From the NCBI GenBank assembly GCA_035527835.1, contig DATKZS010000120.1, forward strand, positions 1-27,867: a DNA stretch of 27,867 nucleotides. Direction: 5' to 3'. A program made the translations under genes and the position numbers. The notes beneath the pieces are model-generated. The model was not told the DNA's origin and made no database searches. It was given only the letters and a program-made list of their open reading frames with translations. This document shows, in pieces, positions 2,435 through 19,817 of this stretch (position 1 is the stretch's first letter; each line of letters starts with the position of its first letter). The stretch comes from DATKZS01 sp035527835 [NCBI: bacterium]. Lineage in GTDB: Bacteria; RBG-13-61-14.

Positions 2435-3745
2435 TTAGCCGTCGCCCGATTTCTCCGTCACGCGTTCGAGCAGGCAGGTCTTGACCTTGAGCGCGTCGGT
2501 CCGGGTGACGGTGACTTTCCAGTCCTTGATCCGGACCACGTCTCCCTCCTTGGGGAAGCGGCCCATCCGGTCGGTGATGAACCCGGAGATCGTGACCACG
2601 TCCTCACCCTCGATCCCGATCCCGAACTTGGAGCGGAGCAGGGCAAGCGGTGCGCGGCCCGCGGCCTCGTAAACCTCGGGCGCGAGCATTTTCAGCCACG
2701 GCGATTCGGTGTCGAACTCGTCCTGGATCGCCCCCACCAACTGCTCCAGCACGTCCTCCAACGTCACCAGCCCCGAAACCGACCCCACCTCGTCCACCAC
2801 CAGCGCCAGGTGGATGTGCGTGTCCCGGAACCGCTGCAACACCTTCTCCAGGCTCTCCTCCTCCGATACCAGCAGCGCCTCGTGCGCCACCGCCTTCAGG
2901 TCCGGCGCGCCAGGCTCGCGCAGCATCCAGAACACGTCGCGGATGTGGACCATCCCGATTACCTTGTCCAGATCGGTCTCGCATAACGGATACCGCGCAA
3001 AATTGTTGCGGCGAGCCTTGTCCAGGCTCGACTCCAGGCCCTGCGCCAGCGAAAAGTAAACGATCTCGTTGCGCGGGACCATAACCTGCCTGGCCTTCGA
3101 ATCAGCGAGACGCAACGCCCGCTCGCTGATCTTCCGTTCCTGCTCGCTGATCTGGCCGCCCGCCGCCGCCTCGGAAAGGATCATCATCAGCTCGGCATCG
3201 CTGTGGGCCAGTTCCTCGTCACTGGCGGGGGTGATGCCCACCAGCTTGAGGGTCCCCAGCGCGGCCGCGTTGAGCACCCAAATGGCCGGCCAGAACATCC
3301 AGAAAAAGAGGCGCAGGGGCATGGAGATCCACAACGCCGTGTCTTCGGTGCGCCGGATCGCCAGGGACTTGGGAGCGAGCTCTCCGAAGACGATGTGCAA
3401 AAAGGTGATGATGATGAAGCCGGTGACGATGGAAATGGAGGAGACGGTGGTCGGATTGTGGATGCCGAGTCCGCGGAGCAGGGGCTTGAGCTCTTCGGAG
3501 ACCATGGGTTCCCCGATCCATCCCAGTCCCAGGCTGGCCATGGTGATGCCGAGCTGGGTGGCGGAAAGGTAGGCGTCAAGGTTCCGGACCAGGACCCGGC
3601 CCACCCGCGCGCGGATGCTGCCCTGCTCCGCGAGCTCGCTGAGCCTGGTCTCGCGGATCTTCACGATGGCGAACTCCGAGGCCACGAAGAAGCCGTTCAG
3701 GAGAACCAGTGCGAACACGGCGCATATTTTGATGAAGATGATCAT
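2435..3745 (-). CDS. CNNM/CBS/CorC-domain membrane protein (HlyC/CorC, TlyC-like family)
   Basis: 436 residues with the classic three-part build. An N-terminal CNNM (DUF21) membrane domain covers residues ~1-150 (NGFFVASEFAIVKIRETRL near the start). Two CBS motifs span ~210-325 (MVPRNEIVYFSL, LALVVDEVGSVSGLVTLEDV), followed by a CorC_HlyC transporter-associated domain at ~345-425. CNNM proteins are tied to Mg2+ or other divalent-cation efflux and resistance; the older 'hemolysin' label is historical. CBS pairs usually bind adenine nucleotides and gate the membrane part. Length and domain order are normal. The start at 3745 is preceded by only a weak purine stretch. It ends 7 bases from the convergent membrane-protein gene. 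Confidence 0.92.
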   Translation of the reverse strand: MIIFIKICAVFALVLLNGFFVASEFAIVKIRETRLSELAEQGSIRARVGRVLVRNLDAYLSATQLGITMASLGLGWIGEPMVSEELKPLLRGLGIHNPTTVSSISIVTGFIIITFLHIVFGELAPKSLAIRRTEDTALWISMPLRLFFWMFWPAIWVLNAAALGTLKLVGITPASDEELAHSDAELMMILSEAAAGGQISEQERKISERALRLADSKARQVMVPRNEIVYFSLAQGLESSLDKARRNNFARYPLCETDLDKVIGMVHIRDVFWMLREPGAPDLKAVAHEALLVSEEESLEKVLQRFRDTHIHLALVVDEVGSVSGLVTLEDVLEQLVGAIQDEFDTESPWLKMLAPEVYEAAGRAPLALLRSKFGIGIEGEDVVTISGFITDRMGRFPKEGDVVRIKDWKVTVTRTDALKVKTCLLERVTEKSGDG

Positions 3746-5811: not shown

Positions 5812-6456
5812 ATGGCCAATGAGGTTGTTCTCCCGGAAGTGGGGCCGCTGATCGAGAAGATGAAGGAGAAGTTCGCCGCCGCCGGCGACCAGCTCATCCC
5901 CATGCTCCAGCACCTGCAGACCGAGATGGGCTATCTGCCGAACGAGGGCCTGACCTCCATCGCGGACTATCTGAAGGTCCCGGCCAGCCACGTGTACGGA
6001 GTGGCCACCTTCTACGCCCAGTTCCGCTTCAAGCCGCTAGGCTTTAACCGCATCACCGTCTGCCGCGGAACCGCCTGCCACGTGCGCGGCAGCCAGCGCC
6101 TGCTCGATGAGATCGAGCGCGAGATGAAGATCAAGGCCGGCGACACCACCCCCGACCTCATGTTCTCGCTCCAGACCGTGGCCTGCCTCGGATCCTGCGC
6201 CCAGGCCCCCGTGGTCGTGGTCAACGACAAGGTGTACGGAAAGATGACCTCAAAGGCCGCGAAGAAGATCATCAGCCAGGTCGGCGCGGAAAAAACAGCC
6301 CCAGCCGCGCCGCCTGCTCCGTCAGCAAAAGCGGAAGACAAGAAAGCACAACCGGAGAAAAAGGCCGCGGCGCAAAAGCCCGCGCCGGAATCCAAGAAGC
6401 CCGCGGCAAAGAAGCCGGCGGCGAAAAAAGCCGGGAAGTCCCGCAAGAAAAAATAG
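5812..6456 (+). CDS. NuoE/HndA-like [2Fe-2S] subunit with Lys/Ala/Pro tail
   Basis: 214 residues. Start chosen at ATG 5812 because GAGGGGG lies just upstream; an in-frame ATG at 5797 has no Shine-Dalgarno. Residues ~5-160 match the 24-kDa (NuoE, HndA, HydC) thioredoxin-like ferredoxin family: a helical N-terminal part (GYLPNEGLTSIADYL, SHVYGVATFYAQF), then the cluster ligands C84-x4-C89 in CRGTACHVRG and C125-x3-C129 in CLGSCAQAP. The protein relays electrons from a flavin subunit, here most likely the NuoF-like protein encoded next. Residues ~161-214 are an unusual low-complexity tail (PAAKKPAAKKAGKSRKKK at the end), absent from the second NuoE copy and from typical family members. It is first gene of the operon; 79 bases separate it from the next. 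Confidence 0.93.
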   Translation: MANEVVLPEVGPLIEKMKEKFAAAGDQLIPMLQHLQTEMGYLPNEGLTSIADYLKVPASHVYGVATFYAQFRFKPLGFNRITVCRGTACHVRGSQRLLDEIEREMKIKAGDTTPDLMFSLQTVACLGSCAQAPVVVVNDKVYGKMTSKAAKKIISQVGAEKTAPAAPPAPSAKAEDKKAQPEKKAAAQKPAPESKKPAAKKPAAKKAGKSRKKK

Positions 6457-6535
6457 ACGAGCGCCGGATGGCGGGCCCTGGCGCACGGCCCGCGGATAGA
6501 TCATCTTGTGCCGCGAATGGTCAAGGAGGAAGCCA

Positions 6536-9500
6536 GTGGATTTCGAAGCAATCAGGAGTAAGGCCGCTCAGGAATGGAGAGAGATCGAGGACAACGCGGC
6601 GCCGATCATCTTCATCGGGACCGCGACCTGCGGCCGGGCGGCGGGCGCCGAGGAAATCCTGCAGGAGCTTAGGCGGCTGAACCTGGACGCGCGGATCGTC
6701 GAGGTCGGCTGCATCGGGACCTGTTATGCCGAGCCCCTTCTCTACATCAAGAAGCCGGGCCGGCCCATCATCGTCTACGGCGAGATGGACGTCAAGAAGA
6801 CCAACAAAGTGCTCGAGGCCTACCTCATGAACGACGACCCGCTTCCCGCCGAGGCCATGGGCATCCTCGGACCCGGAAAGGTTGACGGCATCCCCGACTT
6901 CTTCAGCCTGCCCATGCTCAAACCCCAGAAACGCGTGGTCCTCAGAAACTGCGGGATCATAGACCCCAACAACATCTACCACTACATCGCGCGCGGCGGC
7001 TATTCCGGCCTCACGCGCGCGCTCGCCCTGAAGCCGGAGGAGGTGATCGAGGAGGTCATGGTCTCGGGCCTGCGCGGCCGCGGCGGCGCCGGCTTCCCCA
7101 CCGGCCAGAAGTGGAAATTCTGCCGCCAGTCGCCGGGCTCGGACAAATATTTGATCTGCAACGCGGACGAGGGCGACCCCGGAGCGTTCATGGACCGCTC
7201 GGCGATCGAGGGCGACCCGCACGCGGTGCTGGAAGGCATGTGCATCGCGGCTTACGCCATCGGGGCGAACCACGGCTACGTTTACATCCGCGCCGAGTAC
7301 CCGCTGGCGATCGTGCAGCTTAGGAAGGCCATGGCGCGGATGAAGGAGTTCGGGTTCCTGGGCGACAGGATCATGGGCTCCGGCTTCTCGTTCGACATCA
7401 AGATCAAGGAGGGCGCGGGCGCGTTCGTGTGCGGCGAGGAGACGGCGCTCATGGCCTCCATCGAGGGCGAGCGGGGCATGCCGCGGGCCCGGCCGCCGTT
7501 CCCGGCGGTGAAGGGCCTGTTCGGCAAGCCCACCAACATCAACAACGTCGAGACCCTCGCCAACGTCTCCGCCATCCTGGAGAAGGGCGGCAAATGGTTC
7601 GCGTCGTTCGGCACCGAGAAGTCGAAGGGCTCCAAGACCTTCGCGCTCGCCGGCAAGATCGTCCGCACCGGCCTGATCGAGGTGCCCATGGGCATGCCGC
7701 TCAACCAGGTCATCTACGAGATCGGCGGCGGGATCGTGGGCGGAAAGAAATTAAAGGCGGTGCAGACCGGAGGTCCTTCCGGGGGCTGCATTCCCGCCAA
7801 GTTCATGGACCTGCCCATTGACTACGAAAACCTGGTCAAGGTCGGCTCCATCGTTGGCTCCGGCGGCATGGTGGTGATGGACGAGGACAACTGCATGGTG
7901 GACATCGCGCGCTATTTCCTCAACTTCACCCAGTCGGAGTCGTGCGGCAAGTGCACGCCCTGCCGGCTGGGCACCAAGGCCATGCTCGACATTTTAACAC
8001 GTATCACCAAGGGCCAGGGCGAGCCGGGCGACATCGAGCTGCTCCTGGAGCTGGCCGAGGGCATCAAGATGGGGAGCCTGTGCGGACTCGGGCAGACCGC
8101 GCCCAACCCCGTGCTCACCACTCTCCGCTACTTCCGCCATGAATACATCGCGCACGTCAAGGACAAGTATTGTCCGAGCGGTGCGTGCAAGGGCCTTTCC
8201 GCGCCGCCATGCCAGAAGAGCTGCCCCGCGGGAGTGGACGTTCCCGCGTACAACGCGCTCATCGCCCAGGGCCGCTTTGACGAGGCCCTGGACGTGATCC
8301 GCCTCGACAACCCCTTCCCCGGCGTGTGCGGCCGCCTGTGCAGCCGCCCCTGCGAGAAGAACTGCGTGCAGGCCGAGACCGATGAAGGCCTCGCCATCCG
8401 CTCGCTCAAGCGCTTTGTGGCCGACCATGAGCGGGGGCACTATCGAACGCGGCCCCTGCCGGCGGGGACCGCCTATCCGGAAAAGGTTGCGGTCATCGGT
8501 TCCGGTCCCTCCGGCCTGACCGCGGCGCGGGACCTCCGGCGCGAGGGGTATCCCGTAACGGTCTTCGAGGCCGACACCCGGCCGGGCGGCATGCTCCGCC
8601 TGGCCATTCCCGATTTCCGGCTGCCACCCGAAGTCGTGGAGCACGACATCCAGGTGATCGTGGACAGCGGCGTGGAGCTGCGCACCGGGGCGGCCCTGGG
8701 CAAGGACTTCACCATCAGCGACCTGCGCGACCAGGGCTATAAAGCCATCCTCATCGCCGTCGGCTCGCACCGGGGTATATTGCCGGACCTTCCGGGAGTC
8801 AAGGGCAACGGGGTCCTTAAAGCCCTTGACTTCCTTAAAGAGGTGAAGTCCGGGAAGAGCAGGGGGCTCTCGGGCGAGGTATTGGTGATCGGGTCCGCCT
8901 ACGCCGCCCTGGACGCGGCGCGGACCGCGGTGCGCCTCGGCGCCTCCCCGGTCGGACTCGTCTACTCCCGCGACCAGGAGCAACTGCCGTTTGAAAAAGC
9001 CGAGTTGCAGGAGGCGGCCGAGGAAGGAGTCATCATCCATTGCCTGCACCAGGCGGTGGAGGTGGTCCGGAACAAGGGCCGGGTGAGCGGCCTGAAATGC
9101 CGGCGCCTGTCCTCGCAAGGCCCGGACCAAACCGGCCGCGCCCGCTCGATGATCGGCGCTGGCCCGGAAGTGCTGCTTTCCGCCCAGACCATTATCTTCG
9201 CCCTGGGCCAGGACCCTGATCTCTCCGTCCTGGGCAAAGAATTCAAGCTGGCGCGGAACGCCTGGAACTGTCTGACCGTGGACGCGGCCACCTCGGGCAC
9301 GGCCGAGCCCGACGTTTTTGCCGCGGGAGACATCACCAGCGGCGGCGGGACCATCATCGAGGCCGTCGCCCAGGGACAGAGGGCCGCGGTGGCCATCCAC
9401 CGCCACTTGCGCGGCCTGGACCAGGGTCTGCCTTATAAACTGGTCAAGCCGCGGCGGCGCGTGCCGTTGGTGGATACGGGCGAAGCCGTGGAAAACTTCA

Positions 9501-9628
9501 AGCGCCCGGAGGAAGCCCGAAGGCCGGCCCGCAAGCGGGCCCATGATTTCAAGGAGACCAATTTGACCCTCTCGGAGATGCTCGCGGTGTGCGAGGCCAG
9601 GCGCTGCCTGCGCTGCGGCATGGACTGA
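6536..9628 (+). CDS. NuoF/HndBC-like flavoprotein fused to GltD-like NAD(P)H oxidoreductase
   Basis: 1030 residues. GTG 6536 is taken as start: AGGAGG lies 6 bases upstream and the reading is VDFEAIRS. Domains: (1) residues ~20-100, thioredoxin-like ferredoxin of HndB type (TATCGRAAGA, VGCIGTCYAEP; three Cys); (2) ~130-540, NuoF core with NADH/FMN motif GRGGAGFPTGQKW (~181-193), SLBB part and ESCGKCTPCRLGT cluster site (~468-480); (3) from ~546, Cys-rich 4Fe-4S module of GltD/DPYD type (CQKSCPAGVDVPAYN, CGRLCSRPCEKNC); (4) ~650-1030, FAD/NAD(P) two-dinucleotide domain with VIGSGPSG at ~653-660, DVFAAGDITSGGG, and a C-terminal ARRCLRCGMD. It likely passes electrons between NADH, a second pyridine nucleotide and the Fe-S chain. 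The second nucleotide site looks atypical (IGSAYAALDAA where GltD normally has a GGGNxA-like motif). Confidence 0.93.
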   Translation: MDFEAIRSKAAQEWREIEDNAAPIIFIGTATCGRAAGAEEILQELRRLNLDARIVEVGCIGTCYAEPLLYIKKPGRPIIVYGEMDVKKTNKVLEAYLMNDDPLPAEAMGILGPGKVDGIPDFFSLPMLKPQKRVVLRNCGIIDPNNIYHYIARGGYSGLTRALALKPEEVIEEVMVSGLRGRGGAGFPTGQKWKFCRQSPGSDKYLICNADEGDPGAFMDRSAIEGDPHAVLEGMCIAAYAIGANHGYVYIRAEYPLAIVQLRKAMARMKEFGFLGDRIMGSGFSFDIKIKEGAGAFVCGEETALMASIEGERGMPRARPPFPAVKGLFGKPTNINNVETLANVSAILEKGGKWFASFGTEKSKGSKTFALAGKIVRTGLIEVPMGMPLNQVIYEIGGGIVGGKKLKAVQTGGPSGGCIPAKFMDLPIDYENLVKVGSIVGSGGMVVMDEDNCMVDIARYFLNFTQSESCGKCTPCRLGTKAMLDILTRITKGQGEPGDIELLLELAEGIKMGSLCGLGQTAPNPVLTTLRYFRHEYIAHVKDKYCPSGACKGLSAPPCQKSCPAGVDVPAYNALIAQGRFDEALDVIRLDNPFPGVCGRLCSRPCEKNCVQAETDEGLAIRSLKRFVADHERGHYRTRPLPAGTAYPEKVAVIGSGPSGLTAARDLRREGYPVTVFEADTRPGGMLRLAIPDFRLPPEVVEHDIQVIVDSGVELRTGAALGKDFTISDLRDQGYKAILIAVGSHRGILPDLPGVKGNGVLKALDFLKEVKSGKSRGLSGEVLVIGSAYAALDAARTAVRLGASPVGLVYSRDQEQLPFEKAELQEAAEEGVIIHCLHQAVEVVRNKGRVSGLKCRRLSSQGPDQTGRARSMIGAGPEVLLSAQTIIFALGQDPDLSVLGKEFKLARNAWNCLTVDAATSGTAEPDVFAAGDITSGGGTIIEAVAQGQRAAVAIHRHLRGLDQGLPYKLVKPRRRVPLVDTGEAVENFKRPEEARRPARKRAHDFKETNLTLSEMLAVCEARRCLRCGMD

Positions 9629-9656
9629 TGCGCCCAAAGAAGGGGAAGGAATTATT

Positions 9657-10109
9657 ATGGAGATCACCCGGCTTGACCAATTGATGGAGAAATACGGCGG
9701 CGACCCATCGGCCCTGATCGCCATCCTGCAGGACATCCAGCGGGAGGAGGGCTATCTCCCCTATCAGACCCTGACCCAACTCTCGGGAAAAATGGAAGTG
9801 CCCCTTTCCCGGATCTATGCGCTGGCCACTTTTTACCGGTCCTTTTCCTTGAAGCCCACCGGCCGGCACAAGATCGGGGTCTGCCTGGGCACGGCCTGCC
9901 ACGTGCGGGGCGGCCAGGCCGTCCTCGACCGCCTGGAGCGGGACCTTGAAGTCCGCGCCGGCAATACCACCACCAACCACCGTTTTACGCTCGAAACCGT
10001 GCGCTGCCTGGGCTGTTGCAGCATCGGGCCGGTGGTAAGGGTTGATCATGAAACCTTCGGCCGGGTACGCCAGGACAAGATGGCCAAGATCCTGAGCCGC
10101 TTTGAGTAG
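9657..10109 (+). CDS. Second NuoE/HndA-like [2Fe-2S] subunit
   Basis: 150 residues, the normal length for this family and without the basic tail seen in the first copy. The ATG at 9657 is preceded by GGGGAAGGA. Cluster ligands are C76-x4-C81 in CLGTACHVRG and C117-x3-C121 in CLGCCSIGP; the second loop has an additional Cys at 120. Helical N-terminal motifs match the family (REEGYLPYQTLTQLS, SRIYALATFYRSF). It lies 28 bases after the NuoF-GltD gene and 37 before the second NuoF gene, so each NuoE is followed by its own NuoF, arguing for two E/F modules in one complex or two related diaphorases. The two NuoE copies clearly differ outside the motifs, so the duplication is not recent. Confidence 0.95.
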   Translation: MEITRLDQLMEKYGGDPSALIAILQDIQREEGYLPYQTLTQLSGKMEVPLSRIYALATFYRSFSLKPTGRHKIGVCLGTACHVRGGQAVLDRLERDLEVRAGNTTTNHRFTLETVRCLGCCSIGPVVRVDHETFGRVRQDKMAKILSRFE

Positions 10110-10146
10110 CTTGCCAACCCGGACCCGGCAACAAAAGAGGAGAGCA

Positions 10147-12036
10147 ATGAGCACGCTGGACCTTATCAGAAGCAGTGACGACCTGGAACGCTGGAAGCGG
10201 GAAGGGACCCGGACCATATCCCCCGGGACCACCAAGATCACCGTGGGCATGGCCACCTGCGGCCAGGCCACCGGCGCCAGGGCGGTGTTCGCGGCCCTGA
10301 CCGAAGAGCTTAATCAAGAGCGCGACGTGATCCTCGCCCAGACCTCCTGCATCGGCTTCTGCCAGATGGAGCCGATGGTCGAGGTCTACCAGCCGGGGAA
10401 ACCGCGGGTGCTGTTTAAACAGATGACCGCGGAAAAAGCGCTGGCGCTGGCCGCCGACCTGAAAAAGGGCGAACTTAACGTCAAACAGGCCCTCTGCACC
10501 CTGGACGGCTTTCCGGGCGGGAGTTCGGCCCCGGGACTGGCGGGCGTTCCCCTCCTGGAGGAGCTCCCGTTTTATCGGAAGCAGACCAAGATCGTGCTCT
10601 CGCGCTGCGGCCGCATCAATCCGGACAGCCTGGCCGAGTATATCGCTTCCGGAGGATATTTCACCTTATGGAGCGTGCTCTCCGGCCTGCCGCCGGATCA
10701 GGTCATTGCCGAGATTGAGCGTTCCGGTTTGCGCGGCCGCGGCGGCGCGGGATTCCCCACCGGCAGGAAATGGCGCCTGGCGCGGGCCGCGGCCGGCTCG
10801 CCCAAGTTCCTCGTTTGCAACGCCGACGAGGGCGACCCGGGAGCGTACATGGACCGGAGCGTCCTGGAAGGCGACCCCTTCGCCATCCTCGAAGGCATGG
10901 CCGTCGGCGCCTACGCCATTGGCGCGGAGCGGGGATTCATCTACGTGCGCGACGAGTATCCGCTGGCGGTGGAGAAACTGGAGAACGCCGCCCGCGAGGC
11001 CCGGGCGCATGGACTGCTGGGCCAAAACATCATGGGCCAGGGACTGGACTTCGACCTCCGCCTGATCCGGGGCGGCGGCGCGTTCGTGTGCGGCGAAGAG
11101 ACCGCGCTGATCGCCTCCATCGAGGGCCGGCCGGGCGAGCCCCGCCAGCGGCCGCCCTTCCCCGCGGAGCAGGGACTCTGGGGCCGGCCCACCGTCATCA
11201 ACAACGTGGAAACCTGGGCCAATGTCCCCTTCATTCTAAGCCCTGAACACAAAGGCCGTTTCGCGGAGCTCGGCACCAAGACCAGCAAAGGGACCAAGGT
11301 CTTCTCCATCGTGGGCAAGATCGTCAACACCGGCCTGATCGAGGTCCCGATGGGGATCAAGCTGCGCGACATCATTTTCGACATCGGGGGGGGCATCCCG
11401 GAGGGCAAGAAGTTCAAGGCCATCCAGACCGGCGGGCCCTCCGGCGGCTGCATCCCGGAAGAGATGCTCGACCTGCCGGTTGATTACGAGAGCCTTAACC
11501 AGGCCGGGGCCATCATGGGCTCGGGCGGCATGATCGTCATGGACCAGGACACCTGCATGGTGGATGTGGCCCGTTACTTCCTGGACTTCCTTAAAGAGGA
11601 ATCGTGCGGCAAGTGCACGCCCTGCCGCGAGGGCATTGACCGGGCCCTGGAAATCCTTGAGCGCATCTGCAAGGGCCAGGGAAGACAAGGCGACCTCGAA
11701 ATGCTGGAAAGCATCGGCAAGATGATGAAGGGCTTCTCGCTCTGCGCGCTGGGCCAAACCGCGCCCAATCCCCTGCTCTCCACGCTCCGTTACTTCCGGG
11801 GCGAGTACGAGGCTCACATCCGCGACCGACGCTGCCCCGCGGGGGTGTGCCGGGACCTGATCCGCTTTTCCATCAGCGCGGAAAAGTGCAACGGGTGCGG
11901 GGCCTGCGTCAAGGCCTGTACCCAGGGCGCCATCACCGGCTCGAAAAAGAAGCCGCACCAGCTCGACCAGGCGCTCTGCATCAAGTGCGGCATGTGTTAT
12001 GAGGTCTGCAAACAGGATGCGGTCATCAAGGAGTAA
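10147..12036 (+). CDS. NuoF/HndC (HydB)-like flavoprotein subunit with 2x[4Fe-4S] tail
   Basis: 629 residues from ATG 10147 (GAGGAG just upstream; the longer in-frame start overlaps the preceding gene and has no support). Residues ~30-110: HndB-type thioredoxin-like ferredoxin domain (MATCGQATGA, SCIGFCQMEP). Residues ~145-560: NuoF core with GRGGAGFPTGRKW (~197-209), ADEGDPGAYMDRS, an SLBB region and ESCGKCTPCREG (cluster N3-type ligands from ~487). Residues ~580-629: bacterial ferredoxin domain with two CxxCxxCxxxC motifs (CNGCGACVKAC, CIKCGMCYEVC). This is the layout of the FMN/NADH subunit of trimeric and tetrameric electron-bifurcating [FeFe] hydrogenases (HydB, HndC). Unlike the first NuoF it keeps the ferredoxin tail and lacks GltD. 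Its stop is 4 bases from the next start. Confidence 0.95.
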   Translation: MSTLDLIRSSDDLERWKREGTRTISPGTTKITVGMATCGQATGARAVFAALTEELNQERDVILAQTSCIGFCQMEPMVEVYQPGKPRVLFKQMTAEKALALAADLKKGELNVKQALCTLDGFPGGSSAPGLAGVPLLEELPFYRKQTKIVLSRCGRINPDSLAEYIASGGYFTLWSVLSGLPPDQVIAEIERSGLRGRGGAGFPTGRKWRLARAAAGSPKFLVCNADEGDPGAYMDRSVLEGDPFAILEGMAVGAYAIGAERGFIYVRDEYPLAVEKLENAAREARAHGLLGQNIMGQGLDFDLRLIRGGGAFVCGEETALIASIEGRPGEPRQRPPFPAEQGLWGRPTVINNVETWANVPFILSPEHKGRFAELGTKTSKGTKVFSIVGKIVNTGLIEVPMGIKLRDIIFDIGGGIPEGKKFKAIQTGGPSGGCIPEEMLDLPVDYESLNQAGAIMGSGGMIVMDQDTCMVDVARYFLDFLKEESCGKCTPCREGIDRALEILERICKGQGRQGDLEMLESIGKMMKGFSLCALGQTAPNPLLSTLRYFRGEYEAHIRDRRCPAGVCRDLIRFSISAEKCNGCGACVKACTQGAITGSKKKPHQLDQALCIKCGMCYEVCKQDAVIKE

Positions 12037-12040
12037 GACC

Positions 12041-12829
12041 ATGATCAAGCTCAAAATCAACGGGCAAGCCGTCAAGGTGGGGCCGGGGACCACGGTCCTG
12101 CAAGCGGCGCAGGGCCTGGGCATTAAGATTCCCACGCTCTGCCATCATGAAGGCCTTACGCCGTACGGGGCCTGCCGTCTGTGCACGGTCGAGATCAATG
12201 ACGCCGGCCGTTCGTCGCTCCAGGCTTCGTGTTGTTATCCGGCCAAGGAGGGCCTGGTTGTGCAAACCGAGACGCCGGCCATCAGCGATGGCCGTAAGCT
12301 GTTGCTGCAACTGTTGCTGGCGCGCTGTTCCCGGTCGCCGGCCATTATCAGGCTGGCCGCGGAATGGGGGGTGACCGCTACCCCCTTCTCGCCCAAAGGC
12401 GAAGAATGCGCGCTCTGCGGCCTCTGCGTCCGGGCCTGCGCCTCCCTGATGAAGGTGGAGGCCATCGCCATGAGCGGACGCGGGGTCTCGCGCAAGGTCA
12501 CCACTCCCTTCGGGTTCATGTCCGAGGAATGCCGGGCCTGCGGGGCCTGCACCTATGTCTGCCCCACCGGCCACATGCAAATGGAAGCGGAAACGGTGGC
12601 GCAACTCCGGAGACAGGTCGGTATTGACCGCAAGTGCCGCTACATGCTGATGGGCCTGGTGGCGAGCAAGCTCTGCCCCAACAACTATGACTGCGCCCAC
12701 TGCGCCTTTGACCAGACCATGGAGCTGCGCCTGGGCACGCACCCGGCCTTTTCCCTCGCCGCGGACGGGAAGGCGGCGTCGGCCGATGATGAAATGCCGG
12801 GAGGCAAGGCAACGCCATCAAGGACATGA
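12041..12829 (+). CDS. [2Fe-2S]/2x[4Fe-4S] ferredoxin subunit, HoxU/HndD-N-terminus-like, without H-cluster
   Basis: 262 residues; ATG 12041 is preceded by AAGGAG inside the end of the previous gene. Residues ~1-75: plant-type [2Fe-2S] ferredoxin (C34, C45, C48 and C64 in LCHHEG, GACRLC, SCCYPA). The His-Cys3 segment that normally follows in NuoG/HydA is missing; instead there is a helical stretch (LLLARCSRSPAIIRLAAEWG). Residues ~123-190: two 4Fe-4S motifs (CALCGLCVRAC, CRACGACTYVCP). Residues ~199-235 add a Cys-rich motif, CRYMLMG and NYDCAHCAFDQTMEL, of a type I recall beside GcvH-like domains in anaerobic bacteria. No [FeFe]-hydrogenase, formate-dehydrogenase or other catalytic domain follows. 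It probably connects the two NuoEF modules to a catalytic partner encoded elsewhere. Confidence 0.88.
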   Translation: MIKLKINGQAVKVGPGTTVLQAAQGLGIKIPTLCHHEGLTPYGACRLCTVEINDAGRSSLQASCCYPAKEGLVVQTETPAISDGRKLLLQLLLARCSRSPAIIRLAAEWGVTATPFSPKGEECALCGLCVRACASLMKVEAIAMSGRGVSRKVTTPFGFMSEECRACGACTYVCPTGHMQMEAETVAQLRRQVGIDRKCRYMLMGLVASKLCPNNYDCAHCAFDQTMELRLGTHPAFSLAADGKAASADDEMPGGKATPSRT

Positions 12830-12915
12830 ACCCGGGGAAAAGGGACTACGGAATGGCCCGGGCCCAGAGGGAAGCCGCGCGCTGTCTCCGGTGCGGCCTG
12901 GAGGTTGAGAAATAG
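12826..12915 (+). CDS. 29-residue CxxC ORF, GltD-C-terminus-like
   Basis: The ATG overlaps the stop of the ferredoxin gene (ATGA), the usual arrangement for translational coupling. The product ends GMARAQREAARCLRCGLEVEK (positions 9-29); its core RCLRCG is the same as in the C-terminus of the GltD domain of the first NuoF (ARRCLRCGMD). Three readings fit: a real small Fe-S or zinc-binding subunit; a leftover of a lost GltD domain; or the true C-terminus of the ferredoxin protein reached by a frameshift, since this frame is open back to 12793. No independent Shine-Dalgarno beyond AAGGA is seen. Real coding is plausible but unproven. Confidence 0.45.
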   Translation: MNPGKRDYGMARAQREAARCLRCGLEVEK

Positions 12916-13018
12916 CTCCCCCCGCCAATCCGTCTCCGCGCCGGCTCGGGCATGGAAGCCTGCGAGTTCGAGGCGGTGCTTTGCGAGTAAGGTGAGATAG
13001 GGTGGTAGAGTTTTTTTT

Positions 13019-13087
13019 CACGCAAAGGCGCAAAGACCGCAAAGATTAATTTTATTTTTTCCTTTGCGTTCTTTGCGCCTTTGCGTG
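13019..13087. repeat. CGCAAAG-heptamer inverted repeat
   Basis: Bases 13019-13044 and 13062-13087 are reverse complements at 25 of 26 positions; each arm is three near-tandem copies of CGCAAAG. The A/T-rich loop is 17 bases. It lies between the convergent ends of the electron-transfer operon and the TPR gene, so a hairpin transcript could act as a bidirectional end signal, but no U-tract of proper form follows. The rest of 12916-13106 holds no evident gene. Confidence 0.8.
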
Positions 13088-13106
13088 CAATAAAATCTTT
13101 CCAACG

Positions 13107-16610: not shown

Positions 16611-16692
16611 GGGGCTTGAGGCATGAGGCTTGGGGCTTGAGGCTTGAGGCTTGGGGCTTGGGGCGGAATTCCTGACCTCAAGCCTCACGCCT
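16611..16692. repeat. GGCTTGA/GGCTTGG heptamer array
   Basis: About seven imperfect tandem copies of GGCTTGA or GGCTTGG run from 16611 to 16664, followed by a reverse-oriented stretch (CCTCAAGCCTCACGCC) at 16676-16691, so the array can fold back on itself. It lies in the 147-base gap between divergent genes. A related array lies downstream of the next gene at 19818-19919. Confidence 0.75.
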
Positions 16693-16703
16693 TGGCGACC
16701 ATC

Positions 16704-19700
16704 ATGGAAGGTTCCGCGAACATAAGCAACGATCCATCTCCGGCGCCCGCCGGCCGTCTGCCCGGGGAGGACACGCCGGCGTGGCCGGTTTTCATTTTCC
16801 TGGCCGCGCTTTGCTGGCGCGCATTGAACTCGCTTTACGGCGACACCTATTACGACGGCTTCGCCTACATCATGACCGCGCGCAACATCCTCTCCGGCCA
16901 CCTGGCCACGCCCTACATCTGCCAGGGCATCACCAACCATTACCAGCCCCTTTATCCGCTGCTCATCGCGGCCCTGAATTTCGCGACTCACGACCTCTTC
17001 GCCTCCGCCCGCCTGGTCAACATCCTGGCCGGCTCGCTGCTGGTGTTTCCCGTTTTCGGTCTGGCCCGAGACGTCTTCGGGCGCAAGGCCGCGATCTACG
17101 CCGGGGCCCTGCTCATCATCAACCCCGAGCTGGTGCGGTCGAGCTCGAACGCCTATTCCGAGCCGGTGTACGTGCTCGCGGGCCTCCTGGGAATCTGGTT
17201 TACGTGGCGCGCCCTGGACCGCGATTCCTGGCGCTGGCTCCTCGCGGGGACCGCTATGTTCGTATTGGCGACCTTTGCCCGCTCGCAAGGCGTCTCCGCC
17301 TTTATCGCCGCCATGCTCGGGTTCGCCGCCGTCCGCCTGCTGGCGCGGCGCGGCGGCCAGCGCCAGGCCGCTTCCATGGCTCTCATCGCCTCCGCGCTGT
17401 TTTTCATCATCGTCGTGCCTTCATTCCGATTCATGGAAAGGAACCAGGACAAGGCGCAGGCCGGCGGCAAGGTCGGCCAGGAATTGTACAAGAAAACCCG
17501 GATGTTTCGCGACCCCCAATGGCTGACGTGGGAGCGCAAGCTGGCCCCGAGCGGCGAGAAATTGTATTGGGTGGACATGGCGTCCCAACGCGGACCGCTG
17601 TGGCCGGTCCGGGAAAAACCCGGAGTATACTTCCGGCTGGCGTTGCGGGACCTGCTGGTCTTCACCATCACTCTCTTCTCCAGGCTCTTCCTGCCTCCGC
17701 TCCTTCTCCTGCCCATCGCCGCGCTCCTGCTGCTCGATCTTGCCCGCCGGGATTTCCAGCGCGGCCTCTGCCTGTATTTCGCCGTGATCCTGGCCGGCAC
17801 CGTCCTCTCTTTGGCCCTCATCGCCTCCACCGTCGAGCGTTATCTGCTGTTGGCGGCCCCGCTTTTCCTGGTGCTGGCCGGAGCGGGCATGGCCGCGGTG
17901 GAGCCGCTGATCATCCGAAAGCTTGGCGAGCTCAAAGCGCCGCGCTTTGTCGCGGGCGCCGTCCCCTGGTTCTTCATCCTCGCATCCCTCGTGTTTTACA
18001 ATCAGCCCCGCCTCTCGAGCTATACCAAGCCGCCGATGCGGGACCAGGCCTACCGCCAGGCCGCCGACTGGGCAAGGCCTTTCCTCGACCCCGCCACGAA
18101 AGAGATCATCATGACCTCCAAGCCCGGCGTGCCGGCCTACACCGGCGACTATTTTTACCTCCTCCCCTTCGACGGCCCGGAGCGCGTGGCCCCTTATGCC
18201 CGCCTGCAAAAGGCAGATTTCATCCTCACCGATGATTGGTTCCTCAAGAAGCTCTCCGGTCCCCAGCGCGAGACCTGGCTCAAGGGCAACCTTGCCCGCC
18301 TGGGCCTCAAGCGGCAGGGAAGGATCGGCCTGGTCAACAACAGCAACGAATTCTCCACGATGACGCTCTACAAGGTCGAGAAGGTGTCGCCCGCCGCGCC
18401 CGAGGGCTCGCCGCCCGGCCTGGCCCTGGAAACGATCGAGGCCATGGCGCGGCGGCTCAAGGCCGCCTCCGGAACAGGGCCTACGCCCAAGCCTCACGTC
18501 ATTTTAATCTCGCTCGACACCCTGCGCGCCGACCACCTTAGCTGCTATGGCTATTTCCGCGAAACCTCGCCCAACCTGGACCTGATCGCGGCCCACGGAG
18601 TCAGGTTCACGCAGGCTTTCAGCCAGGCCCCCCGCACCGCCCCCTCCCACATGACCATGTTCACCGGACTCTATCCGTCGCTGCATCACACCCATTTCGC
18701 TTACTCCCGCGATGGGGCTAAAATGACCCCGTTAAGCAAGGACGTCATCACCCTGCCCATGCTTTTCAAGCAGGCCGGCTACGCCACCGCGGCCTGGACC
18801 GGCGGCGGTGAAGTGGTTGCCGAAGCCGGCTTCGGACGCGGCTTTGACGAGGTCCATGAGACCGTGAGCCGGATCTCCACGGAAAAAATGCGCGTGGTCG
18901 CCGAATGGTTCAAGGCCAATGCCGCCAAGCCGTGCTTCATTTTCCTCCACACCTATCAGATCCATGATCCCTATCTGCCACCGCCGCCGTACAACAAAAT
19001 GTTTGACCCTTCCTACCAGGGCTGGGTGGTGGGTGACGAGGATGAAATCGTAGCGCGGGCGGGAAACCACGAGTGGAACTCGCTGCACCGGGCCTTCTGG
19101 GACGGCGCGTTGGACCAGAAAGGCCTGGTCGTTTCCGCCCGGGTCACGCCGCGCGACGTGGACCACCTGATCGCCCTCTACGACGGCAACATCAGGTACA
19201 CCGACCTGGTCCTGGCCGGGTTCTTCCGCGACCTGATTCGGGACGGGCTCCTCGATCACGCCATCGTGGTCATCACCGCCGACCACGGCGAAGAGTTCGC
19301 GGAGCACGGCGGGTTCCTCCATAAAAAACTCTACCAGGAGACTCTCCACGTTCCCCTGATCATCTTCAGCCCCTCACTGTTTCCGGAGGGGAGGGCCGTC
19401 GGTGGCCGCGTCGGCCTCATTGACTTGCCGGAAACCATCCTCCAACTGGCCGGCCTTTCCGTCCCTTCACAGTTCATGGGACGGAGCCTGGAGCCGGCCA
19501 TCGAGGGAGAGGGCGTCTTCGATACCGTCTACAGCGAGGATCCCTGGGCCGTGACCGGCTCATACATCCGGGGGTTGCGCTCACACGGGTACTTTCTTTA
19601 TGACCAGGGCCCAAACATCGAACTCTATGACATCGGCGCCGACCCCATGGAGCGCTTCGACCTGGCCGACGAGCGCAAACCGGTTCTGGCGGCGATGCGC

Positions 19701-19817
19701 CGGGAGCTGGGAGCGTTCGAGAAAATCCTGGCCGAGCGCTCACGCCCGGCCCCGCTCAACGGGCCGGTTTCGGATGAAAACTTGAAGCAGCTCAGGGCTC
19801 TGGGGTATGTCAAGTAA
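16704..19817 (+). CDS. GT-C-like membrane domain fused to alkaline-phosphatase/sulfatase-fold domain
   Basis: 1037 residues from ATG 16704 (MEGSANISN); the earlier in-frame ATG at 16644 lies inside the repeat array. Residues ~20-450 form a polytopic membrane domain of GT-C/RgtA-D type (GDTYYDGFAYIMTARNIL, HYQPLYPLLIAALN), then a periplasmic stretch to ~590. Residues ~598-1037 are a sulfatase/alkaline-phosphatase-superfamily domain: metal-site D605 in SLDTLRADHL, nucleophile region APRTAPSHMTMFTG, D860-H861 in TADHGEEFAEHGGF, and a C-terminal QLRALGYV. The nucleophile position aligned with the sulfatase formylglycine Cys/Ser is Thr645, so this is unlikely to be an ordinary sulfatase; Thr nucleophiles occur in phosphoethanolamine and related phospho-transferases of this fold. 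It may modify a surface glycan. Confidence 0.88.
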   Translation: MEGSANISNDPSPAPAGRLPGEDTPAWPVFIFLAALCWRALNSLYGDTYYDGFAYIMTARNILSGHLATPYICQGITNHYQPLYPLLIAALNFATHDLFASARLVNILAGSLLVFPVFGLARDVFGRKAAIYAGALLIINPELVRSSSNAYSEPVYVLAGLLGIWFTWRALDRDSWRWLLAGTAMFVLATFARSQGVSAFIAAMLGFAAVRLLARRGGQRQAASMALIASALFFIIVVPSFRFMERNQDKAQAGGKVGQELYKKTRMFRDPQWLTWERKLAPSGEKLYWVDMASQRGPLWPVREKPGVYFRLALRDLLVFTITLFSRLFLPPLLLLPIAALLLLDLARRDFQRGLCLYFAVILAGTVLSLALIASTVERYLLLAAPLFLVLAGAGMAAVEPLIIRKLGELKAPRFVAGAVPWFFILASLVFYNQPRLSSYTKPPMRDQAYRQAADWARPFLDPATKEIIMTSKPGVPAYTGDYFYLLPFDGPERVAPYARLQKADFILTDDWFLKKLSGPQRETWLKGNLARLGLKRQGRIGLVNNSNEFSTMTLYKVEKVSPAAPEGSPPGLALETIEAMARRLKAASGTGPTPKPHVILISLDTLRADHLSCYGYFRETSPNLDLIAAHGVRFTQAFSQAPRTAPSHMTMFTGLYPSLHHTHFAYSRDGAKMTPLSKDVITLPMLFKQAGYATAAWTGGGEVVAEAGFGRGFDEVHETVSRISTEKMRVVAEWFKANAAKPCFIFLHTYQIHDPYLPPPPYNKMFDPSYQGWVVGDEDEIVARAGNHEWNSLHRAFWDGALDQKGLVVSARVTPRDVDHLIALYDGNIRYTDLVLAGFFRDLIRDGLLDHAIVVITADHGEEFAEHGGFLHKKLYQETLHVPLIIFSPSLFPEGRAVGGRVGLIDLPETILQLAGLSVPSQFMGRSLEPAIEGEGVFDTVYSEDPWAVTGSYIRGLRSHGYFLYDQGPNIELYDIGADPMERFDLADERKPVLAAMRRELGAFEKILAERSRPAPLNGPVSDENLKQLRALGYVK

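What the first reader, a model, noticed from the sequence alone, without database searches (positions are those of the whole stretch)
5812..12915. Doubled NuoE-NuoF operon with a ferredoxin subunit and no hydrogenase or other catalytic subunit
Seen: E1, F1-GltD, E2, F2-ferredoxin, then a 2Fe-2S/4Fe-4S protein, in one operon with gaps of 4 to 79 bases. Known: Hnd/Hyd bifurcating hydrogenases use one E, one F and an H-cluster subunit; Nfn uses a GltD-type subunit for NADH-dependent ferredoxin:NADP+ chemistry. Inference: the operon combines Hnd-like and Nfn-like modules into one electron-confurcating or transhydrogenase complex, or a shared diaphorase for an unlinked enzyme.
Basis: partly seen in the sequence, partly recalled or inferred. 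Interest (0 to 1): 0.75.

Follow-up and report, generated by a model that had tools for sequence, protein, structure and literature searches.

The report
Two-core electron-bifurcating operon, rewired flavin domain
An anaerobe's operon carries two copies of a known electron-splitting enzyme core side by side; the closest matching operon ends in a formate dehydrogenase gene, and in both operons a flavin domain that normally handles NADPH appears to have lost its NADPH site, so it may work as an internal wire.

Summary
In detail: E1, F1-GltD, E2, F2-ferredoxin and a small NuoG-like protein lie in one direction with gaps of 79, 28, 37 and 4 bases. Both E-F pairs look like cores of the known Bfu (HydABC-like) family. 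NuoF-GltD fusions are common (161 distinct ones aligned), and one type is in print. Of 82 with 2.8 kb on both sides, 66 have a formate dehydrogenase, [FeFe] or [NiFe] hydrogenase gene within 5 kb; 16, the window included, have none. The doubled order is rare. I found it in one other genome, G415, followed at once by a 917-aa formate dehydrogenase. The new point: of 161 fusions only these two have lost both the glycine pair and the first arginine of the NADP(H) motif, while keeping the FAD motif and nine cluster cysteines. Best reading: a two-core, probably formate-linked Bfu complex whose dehydrogenase is encoded elsewhere, with GltD as an internal FAD/Fe-S relay. The mechanism is inferred, and no host genome was available.

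The parts
5812..6456 (+). E1: NuoE/HydC/BfuC-type [2Fe-2S] thioredoxin-like subunit with a Lys/Ala-rich tail
   Evidence: PF01257 E 9.7e-50; deviates at 0 of 13 near-invariant columns; groups with E of L303-L306 (0.57) and then G415 (0.87)
6536..9628 (+). F1-GltD: BfuB/NuoF core whose C-terminal ferredoxin domain is replaced by a GltD domain (two [4Fe-4S], FAD); NADP(H) motif lost (GSAYAALD...YSRD)
   Evidence: Pfam; core deviates at 1 of 111 near-invariant columns, GltD at 4 of 52, three of them in the NADP Rossmann motif; one of 2 in 161 without both the GG pair and the first Arg
9657..10109 (+). E2: second NuoE/BfuC-type subunit
   Evidence: PF01257 E 6.2e-47; sister of G415 E2, support 0.975
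10147..12036 (+). F2-Fd: second BfuB/NuoF with thioredoxin-like N-terminus, FMN/NADH core and C-terminal 2[4Fe-4S] ferredoxin domain (HydB architecture)
   Evidence: Pfam; residues 30-626 of 629 aligned to the StnB-type chain 9bov_B, E 1.2e-218; sister of G415 F2, support 0.909
12041..12829 (+). G: small BfuA/HydA-N-terminal-like subunit with one [2Fe-2S] and two [4Fe-4S] sets, no PF10588 match and no catalytic domain; C-tail KCRYMLMG..CPNNYDCAHCAFDQ
   Evidence: tail shared with G415, L195 and L336
12826..12915 (+). 29-aa ORF overlapping the stop of G by ATGA, with a GltD-type REAARCLRCG motif; stub of a lost gene or a microprotein
   Evidence: only a sub-threshold Pfam match to Fer4_20, E 0.043

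Best explanation
The operon encodes the electron-splitting part of a Bfu-family (HydABC-like) enzyme with two BfuBC cores. Shown from sequence: E1-F1 and E2-F2 are two cores whose near-invariant residues are almost all kept; F2 carries the ferredoxin port; G is a small relay BfuA without a catalytic domain; F1 carries a GltD domain in place of a ferredoxin port, and this domain keeps its FAD motif and cluster ligands but has lost the NADP(H) motif. Inferred: the third substrate enters through a separately encoded dehydrogenase, most likely a formate dehydrogenase, whose electrons (about -420 mV) are split between NAD+ at the FMN sites and ferredoxin at F2, or merge in reverse. GltD does not reduce NADP+. 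Its clusters and FAD pass single electrons inside the complex, from F1 towards G/E2-F2, so that the two cores share one dehydrogenase and one ferredoxin outlet.
For: Same five-gene order in G415, with FdhA (PF00384 E 8.5e-93, NuoG-like N-terminus) directly downstream. The two best F1 matches in the phylum samples are G113 and G415 (1196.8 and 1196.2 bits); in G113 the next genes are an FDH split at an in-frame TGA (L143). Close relatives of E1-F1 in three genomes of the sample have a convergent FDH, split at TGA, next to E>F-GltD (L333-L335). An E2-F2-G-type module precedes FDH pieces in L285. NADP motif: 2 of 161 F-GltD lack both the GG pair and the first Arg, exactly these two; nine of nine cluster Cys kept. 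The NADP subdomain of the two is unusually diverged relative to the FAD parts: ratio 0.84 against a mean of 1.17, 167 of 7605 pairs as low. The GltD domain is predicted to fold like StnC (Z 47.4 to 9bov_A) and keeps the StnC-type Lys ligand.
Against: No FDH in the window and no genome to look in; 15 other F-GltD loci of 82 also lack a recognised dehydrogenase or hydrogenase gene within 5 kb, so a bare operon need not hide one. Only one other doubled operon was found. Window and G415 GltD are sisters (0.99), so the motif loss may be one event, and long branches (5th and 10th longest of 161) may pull them together. The NuoF core of F1 does not clearly join G415's (support 0.07; it sits with L303-L306 at 0.79), so the history of the whole operon is unclear. 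The second FAD part is as diverged between the two (36%) as the NADP part (37%). Each module occurs alone elsewhere with other partners. Nothing shows that the two cores touch. G415's own F1 core is eroded at 6 of 111 near-invariant columns.
Confidence: 0.4

Rival explanations
1. Two independent enzymes share one operon: E1-F1-GltD is the diaphorase of a formate dehydrogenase encoded elsewhere, and E2-F2-G is a Type 2 Bfu module serving another unlinked partner such as Por, Hdr or a tungsten enzyme.
For: In other genomes the modules do occur apart: F-GltD with FDH, FeFe, NiFe or MetVF, and E-F-Fd-small G with POR (PF01558, PF01855), HdrA-like and FDH genes. F1 and F2 fall in different parts of the NuoF tree, and the F1 core of the window does not clearly join that of G415.
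Against: The same order is kept in two genomes whose proteins are only about 46-60% identical, with gaps of 4 to 79 bases in the window. Loss of both NADP motif elements was seen only in F1-GltD of these two operons, which a stand-alone FDH diaphorase would not explain.
Confidence: 0.3
2. A rearranged Stn-type transhydrogenase (NADH + reduced ferredoxin to NADPH) in which the GltD domain moved from StnC to a second NuoF; no further catalytic subunit is needed.
For: All Stn modules are present (NuoE, NuoF-Fd, NuoG-like N-terminus, GltD). The GltD is closest in fold to StnC-type chains (9bov_A Z 47.4, 8oh5_C Z 46.0) and keeps K170. It would explain the missing catalytic subunit.
Against: GSAY/YSR replaces GGGN/YRR in the NADP(H) Rossmann motif. 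Stn itself has one NuoE-NuoF pair, with GltD in the NuoG-like subunit. G415 adds an FDH.
Confidence: 0.13
3. A decaying operon: the sixth gene has been deleted and F1-GltD is drifting.
For: A 29-aa stub with a GltD-type Cys motif follows G. FDH is absent although present in G415. The terminal branch of the window GltD is the 5th longest of 161.
Against: All five ORFs are open. F1 core deviates at 1 of 111 and F2 at 3 of 111 near-invariant columns, and the Fe-S ligands examined in G and GltD are kept.
Confidence: 0.12

Closest known systems
Bfu family of electron-bifurcating enzymes (HydABC homologues; PMC9304861, section 4 part 1 and section 5 read)
   Same: E2-F2-G has BfuC, BfuB (thioredoxin-like N-terminus, FMN core, C-terminal 2[4Fe-4S]) and a small BfuA resembling Type 2, which feeds from extra subunits
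   Different: Two BfuBC-like pairs with one small BfuA and no adjacent catalytic subunit; F1 lacks the C-terminal ferredoxin domain that is part of the family's definition
Stn / Nfn-Bfu transhydrogenase, StnABC (PMC10482914 and PMC7483475, sections; PDB 8oh5, 9bov, 9n5u)
   Same: Same modules; GltD with StnC-type Lys ligand and best fold match to StnC-type chains
   Different: GltD fused to a second NuoF rather than to the NuoG-like subunit; NADP(H) motif lost; two NuoE-NuoF pairs
Sub-type I BfuABC of Hydrogenedentota [FeFe]-hydrogenases (PMC11406978, passages)
   Same: BfuB whose B3/B4 ferredoxin domain is replaced by a DPD_II plus FAD/NAD(P) domain, as in F1-GltD
   Different: A hydrogenase with an H-cluster BfuA; the passages seen mention no second BfuB with a ferredoxin domain in the same complex
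FDH-linked Bfu enzymes (Gottschalkia Fdh-Bfu, PMC9304861; Chloroflexi FdhAB, PMC5736913 passages)
   Same: FDH subunit next to NuoE/NuoF-type subunits, as in G415
   Different: One NuoF-type subunit, as described there; no FDH in the window

Membership tests
Bfu family (E2-F2-G) | BfuB with thioredoxin-like N-terminus, FMN core, NADH_4Fe-4S and C-terminal ferredoxin domain | tested here: met
   Pfam on F2 (the thioredoxin-like hit is below its cut-off, 21.3 against 24.8 bits); alignment over 30-626 to 9bov_B and 37-626 to 7t2r_B
Bfu family (E2-F2-G) | BfuC [2Fe-2S] subunit and a BfuA with Fer2 and 4Fe-4S domains in the operon | tested here: met
   E2 PF01257; G Fer2_4 and Fer4; 12 Cys invariant over 17 G sequences
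Bfu family (E1-F1) | C-terminal ferredoxin domain on BfuB | tested here: not met
   Replaced by Fer4_20 plus Pyr_redox_2; so F1 is a derived relative of BfuB, as in sub-type I of PMC11406978
Bfu Type 2 | BfuA lacks A3/A5 clusters and extra catalytic subunits are encoded with it | tested here: inconclusive
   G has no PF10588 match; cluster names not mapped to a structure; no catalytic subunit in the window
Stn transhydrogenase | GltD fused to a NuoG-like subunit (StnC) | tested here: not met
   GltD is fused to NuoF; G is 262 aa without GltD
Stn transhydrogenase | NADP(H)-binding GltD | tested here: not met
   GGGN to GSAY and YRR to YSR by motif; binding itself not assayed
Bifurcating [FeFe] or [NiFe] hydrogenase | H-cluster or NiFe subunit | tested here: not met
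   None among 19 window ORFs scanned; an unlinked subunit cannot be excluded
FDH-Bfu | Molybdopterin FDH subunit | not testable with these tools
   Not found in the window; present in G415; no host genome held
Any bifurcating enzyme | Coupled reduction of NAD+ and ferredoxin | not testable with these tools
   Needs purified protein

The most novel reading that the evidence does not exclude
A two-core Bfu complex in which the GltD flavoprotein domain has been stripped of its NADP(H) site and reused as an internal FAD/Fe-S bridge between two FMN-type bifurcating cores, giving a tandem (two-stage or two-acceptor) bifurcation machine driven by formate.
Probability: 0.26. Interest if true: 0.75.

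Novelty: new variant of a known kind. Interest (0 to 1): 0.5.

Why it matters
In the sections and passages I read, each functional Bfu unit has one BfuBC core. Two linked cores would allow electrons to be split twice, or shared between two acceptors, from one donor. A GltD domain that keeps FAD and clusters but loses its nucleotide site would be an unusual natural case of a redox enzyme turned into a wire, and it can be tested by a simple NADPH assay. That NuoF exchanges its C-terminal ferredoxin domain for GltD in many contexts also makes the outlet of the bifurcated electron a separable, exchangeable module.

Tried and rejected
Host genome search: none held. Taxonomy of the window: the CNNM protein (2435-3745) matched best, of 31 genomes tried, one labelled Thermoanaerobaculia (G677, 41% identity, 341 bits; next best 233 bits), so the window may be acidobacterial. 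This is a hint only. F1 was then searched in 347 genomes of that phylum; no doubled operon was seen in the 30 loci returned or the 10 longer stretches fetched. F2 was searched in the 38 genomes of one class; none was seen in the listed matches or the 12 loci.

Other doubled arrangements were looked at and set apart. L144 is F-GltD>E>plain F(424)>G>NiFe S>L, with intact GGGN/YRR. L013, L161, L170, L175 and L181 are two FeFe hydrogenase sets in tandem, each with its own G. L169 is F-GltD>G>FDH>E>F. L144 is the nearest counter-case: a doubled diaphorase with the NADP motif intact.

Sampling of further phyla with F1 (118, 117, 179 and 178 genomes) gave no match above 1043 bits, against 1196 for G415 and G113. 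The loci (L372-L374) came after the motif count and are not in it. In one search the list of matches was cut, so G415 being the only one of 80 relatives with both F types adjacent holds for the listed rows only. The neighbour tally uses BLAST labels from my own reference set, so 'none' may miss distant genes.

The model of G was poor (mean pLDDT 64.5) and was not searched. A claim of two independent motif losses was dropped, since the two GltD domains are sisters. The 29-aa ORF as a conserved microprotein was rejected for now: no like-placed ORF with the motif was found in the other loci; the two other short hits are one F-GltD tail seen twice (L103, L170).

Full report
Observation. The window has five ORFs in one direction: E1 (5812-6456), F1-GltD (6536-9628), E2 (9657-10109), F2-Fd (10147-12036) and G (12041-12829), with gaps of 79, 28, 37 and 4 bases at the start codons I chose. 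Pfam and NCBIfam give NuoE, NuoF and GltD-type domains and a Fer2/4Fe-4S protein without a catalytic domain. The nearest flanking genes show no link to electron transfer: CNNM, an ORF without a Pfam match, TPR and a URO-D-like methyltransferase. There is no Rfam match at the gathering score.

What the parts are. F2 aligns along most of its length with the NuoF-like subunits of Stn and of bifurcating hydrogenases (9bov_B, 7t2r_B, 8oh5_B, 7q4v_B). G's best solved relative is a 247-aa NuoG-like chain (9mqx_A, E 1.1e-39). Over 17 related G proteins the twelve cysteines expected to hold one [2Fe-2S] and two [4Fe-4S] clusters are invariant. F1's NuoF core deviates at 1 of 111 near-invariant columns over 278 sequences, F2's at 3 of 111, E1 at 0 of 13 and E2 at 1 of 13 over 264 sequences. 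So both pairs look like working cores of the Bfu (HydABC-like) family described in PMC9304861 (abstract, section 4 part 1 and section 5 read).

F1-type fusions elsewhere. NuoF fused to GltD is common. Across loci from a genome-wide scan and phylum samples I aligned 161 distinct ones. Of 82 that have at least 2.8 kb on both sides, 66 have FDH (18), FDH with MetF (15), [FeFe] (13), [NiFe] (12) or FDH-like with NiFe (8) within 5 kb, and 16, the window included, have none of these (BLAST labels; examples confirmed by Pfam). Some FDH genes are split at an in-frame TGA (L143, L333-L335), probably selenocysteine by inference. One such fusion, in [FeFe] hydrogenases, is in print (PMC11406978, passages).

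The doubled order. Of 159 distinct long F-GltD genes (window included), 91 had at least 2.8 kb of sequence downstream. A directly following E>F-ferredoxin pair was seen in two, the window and G415 (L142); one more (L144) is followed by E>plain F. G415 belongs to the phylum sample drawn around the genome of L023, labelled Dehalococcoidia. Its operon reads E, F-GltD, E, F-Fd, G (272 aa with the longest start), then a 917-aa protein with a NuoG-like N-terminus and molybdopterin FDH domains. In trees, window and G415 are sisters for GltD (0.99), E2 (0.975) and F2 (0.909). E1 and the F1 core sit first with L303-L306, loci from the sample around G677 (0.57 and 0.79); G415 joins E1 next (0.87) but the F1 core only at 0.07. 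In three of those genomes (L333-L335) a convergent FDH lies beside E>F-GltD; the fourth contig is too short to tell.

The NADP(H) site. GltD domains carry a second Rossmann motif, GGGN...YRR in most fusions. Its role in NADP(H) binding is recalled from the family; PMC7483475 section 8 names the second glycine-rich motif of StnC (GxGxxA) as the proposed NADP(H) site. Of 161 sequences, 139 have GGGN/YRR, 8 GGGN/CLE (in FDH-MetVF-type loci or cut loci of that layout), 12 small variants with YRR, and two have lost both the GG pair and the first Arg: GSAY/YSR in the window and GCDH/YPR in G415. The last glycine of the motif is otherwise invariant (138 of 139 non-window sequences, the exception being G415). 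The nine cluster cysteines are kept in both, as are the FAD GxGxxG motif and the StnC-type Lys that replaces the Glu ligand of bifurcating NfnB (roles from PMC10482914 sections 8, 9 and 11). Between window and G415 the cluster part is 57% identical, the first FAD part 49%, the NADP subdomain 37% and the second FAD part 36%. The NADP-to-FAD ratio of 0.84 is low against a mean of 1.17 for pairs of like FAD identity (167 of 7605 as low; pairs are not independent). The two rank 4th and 5th lowest of 159 for their mean ratio, among CLE-type sequences. The predicted fold is intact (mean pLDDT 87.9) and matches StnC-type chains best. So the domain is probably folded and carries FAD, but is unlikely to bind NADP(H). 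This is motif evidence, not an assay.

E2-F2-G elsewhere. Relatives of this module lie in operons with POR subunits (L286: PF01558, PF01855, TPP_enzyme_C), an HdrA-like protein (L288: FAD and 4Fe-4S domains; the name HdrA is recalled), a Glu_synthase-like protein (L302) and FDH pieces (L285). It therefore behaves as a plug-in BfuCBA module whose partner varies. The C-terminal tail of G (CRYMLMG...CPNNY.C..C..DQ) was found only in the window, G415, L195 and L336 among the loci held at that point.

Mechanism proposed. Formate (or another donor near -420 mV) would enter through a separately encoded dehydrogenase. F1 and F2 exchange hydride with NAD(H) at FMN. Low-potential electrons leave to ferredoxin through the C-terminal clusters of F2, as proposed for StnAB and HydBC (PMC10482914, sections 10 and 11). 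The GltD clusters occupy the place of F1's ferredoxin clusters in the chain; with no NADP(H) site they can only pass electrons on inside the complex, most simply to G or E2-F2. The core assignments rest on sequence; the partner, the contact and the direction are inferred.

Alternatives and limits. Two separate enzymes in one operon is the strongest rival, because each module occurs alone elsewhere and the F1 cores of the two operons do not clearly group. A rearranged Stn is disfavoured by the lost motif. Decay is possible: FDH is missing, a 29-aa stub with a GltD-type cysteine motif overlaps the end of G, and the GltD branch is long. Only one comparison operon exists; the motif loss may be a single ancestral event; L144 shows that a doubled diaphorase can keep its NADP motif; 15 other F-GltD loci also lack a recognised catalytic neighbour.

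Literature. Searches listed no paper whose title, abstract or opened passages describe an operon with two NuoE-NuoF pairs, one with GltD and one with ferredoxin, or a NADP-site-less GltD in such an enzyme; only open-licence PMC papers were searched, and most listed papers were not opened. Opened: sections of PMC10482914, PMC9304861 (4 part 1, 5) and PMC7483475; passages only of PMC11406978, PMC5736913, PMC10327494, PMC9012536 and PMC2702500.

Verdict. A real and rare two-core variant of a known enzyme family; most likely the bifurcating half of a formate-linked complex. The lost NADP(H) site is the feature worth following.

Noticed in passing
window 12826-12915: 29-aa ORF starting inside the stop of G (ATGA) with a GltD-type REAARCLRCG motif; no like-placed ORF with the motif found in the other loci; weak Fer4_20 match (E 0.043) below cut-off.
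   Followed up: partly
L110, L178, L199, L201, L205, L206, L212 (and L109, cut): Eight F-GltD fusions, in FDH-MetVF-type operons, have CLE in place of YRR but keep GGGN; perhaps a switch from NADP(H) to NAD(H).
   Followed up: no
L144 (G312): F-GltD>E>plain NuoF>NuoG-like>NiFe small>NiFe large: another doubled diaphorase with one NuoG and a [NiFe] hydrogenase, NADP motif intact.
   Followed up: partly
L161, L170, L175, L181, L013: Tandem pairs of [FeFe] hydrogenase gene sets, one with GltD-type and one with plain or ferredoxin-type NuoF.
   Followed up: no
L171:1120-1845 (-): A 242-aa NuoF-like protein that matches the NuoF core only in its C-terminal part and seems to lack the FMN domain, between F-GltD (GGGY motif) and a NuoG-type FDH.
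   Followed up: no
L195:4809-6089 and L336:2-514: The CRYMxxG..CPN.Y.C..C..DQ tail of G also occurs next to a glycine-cleavage-H-like domain (PF01597 in L195); L336 looks alike by eye.
   Followed up: no
window 13010-13095: Inverted repeat cgcaaaggcgcaaag...ctttgcgcctttgcg between the operon and the convergent TPR gene, seen by eye; perhaps a two-way terminator.
   Followed up: no
window 16644-19817: 1057-aa ORF joining a PMT_2 glycosyltransferase-like part to a sulfatase part.
   Followed up: no
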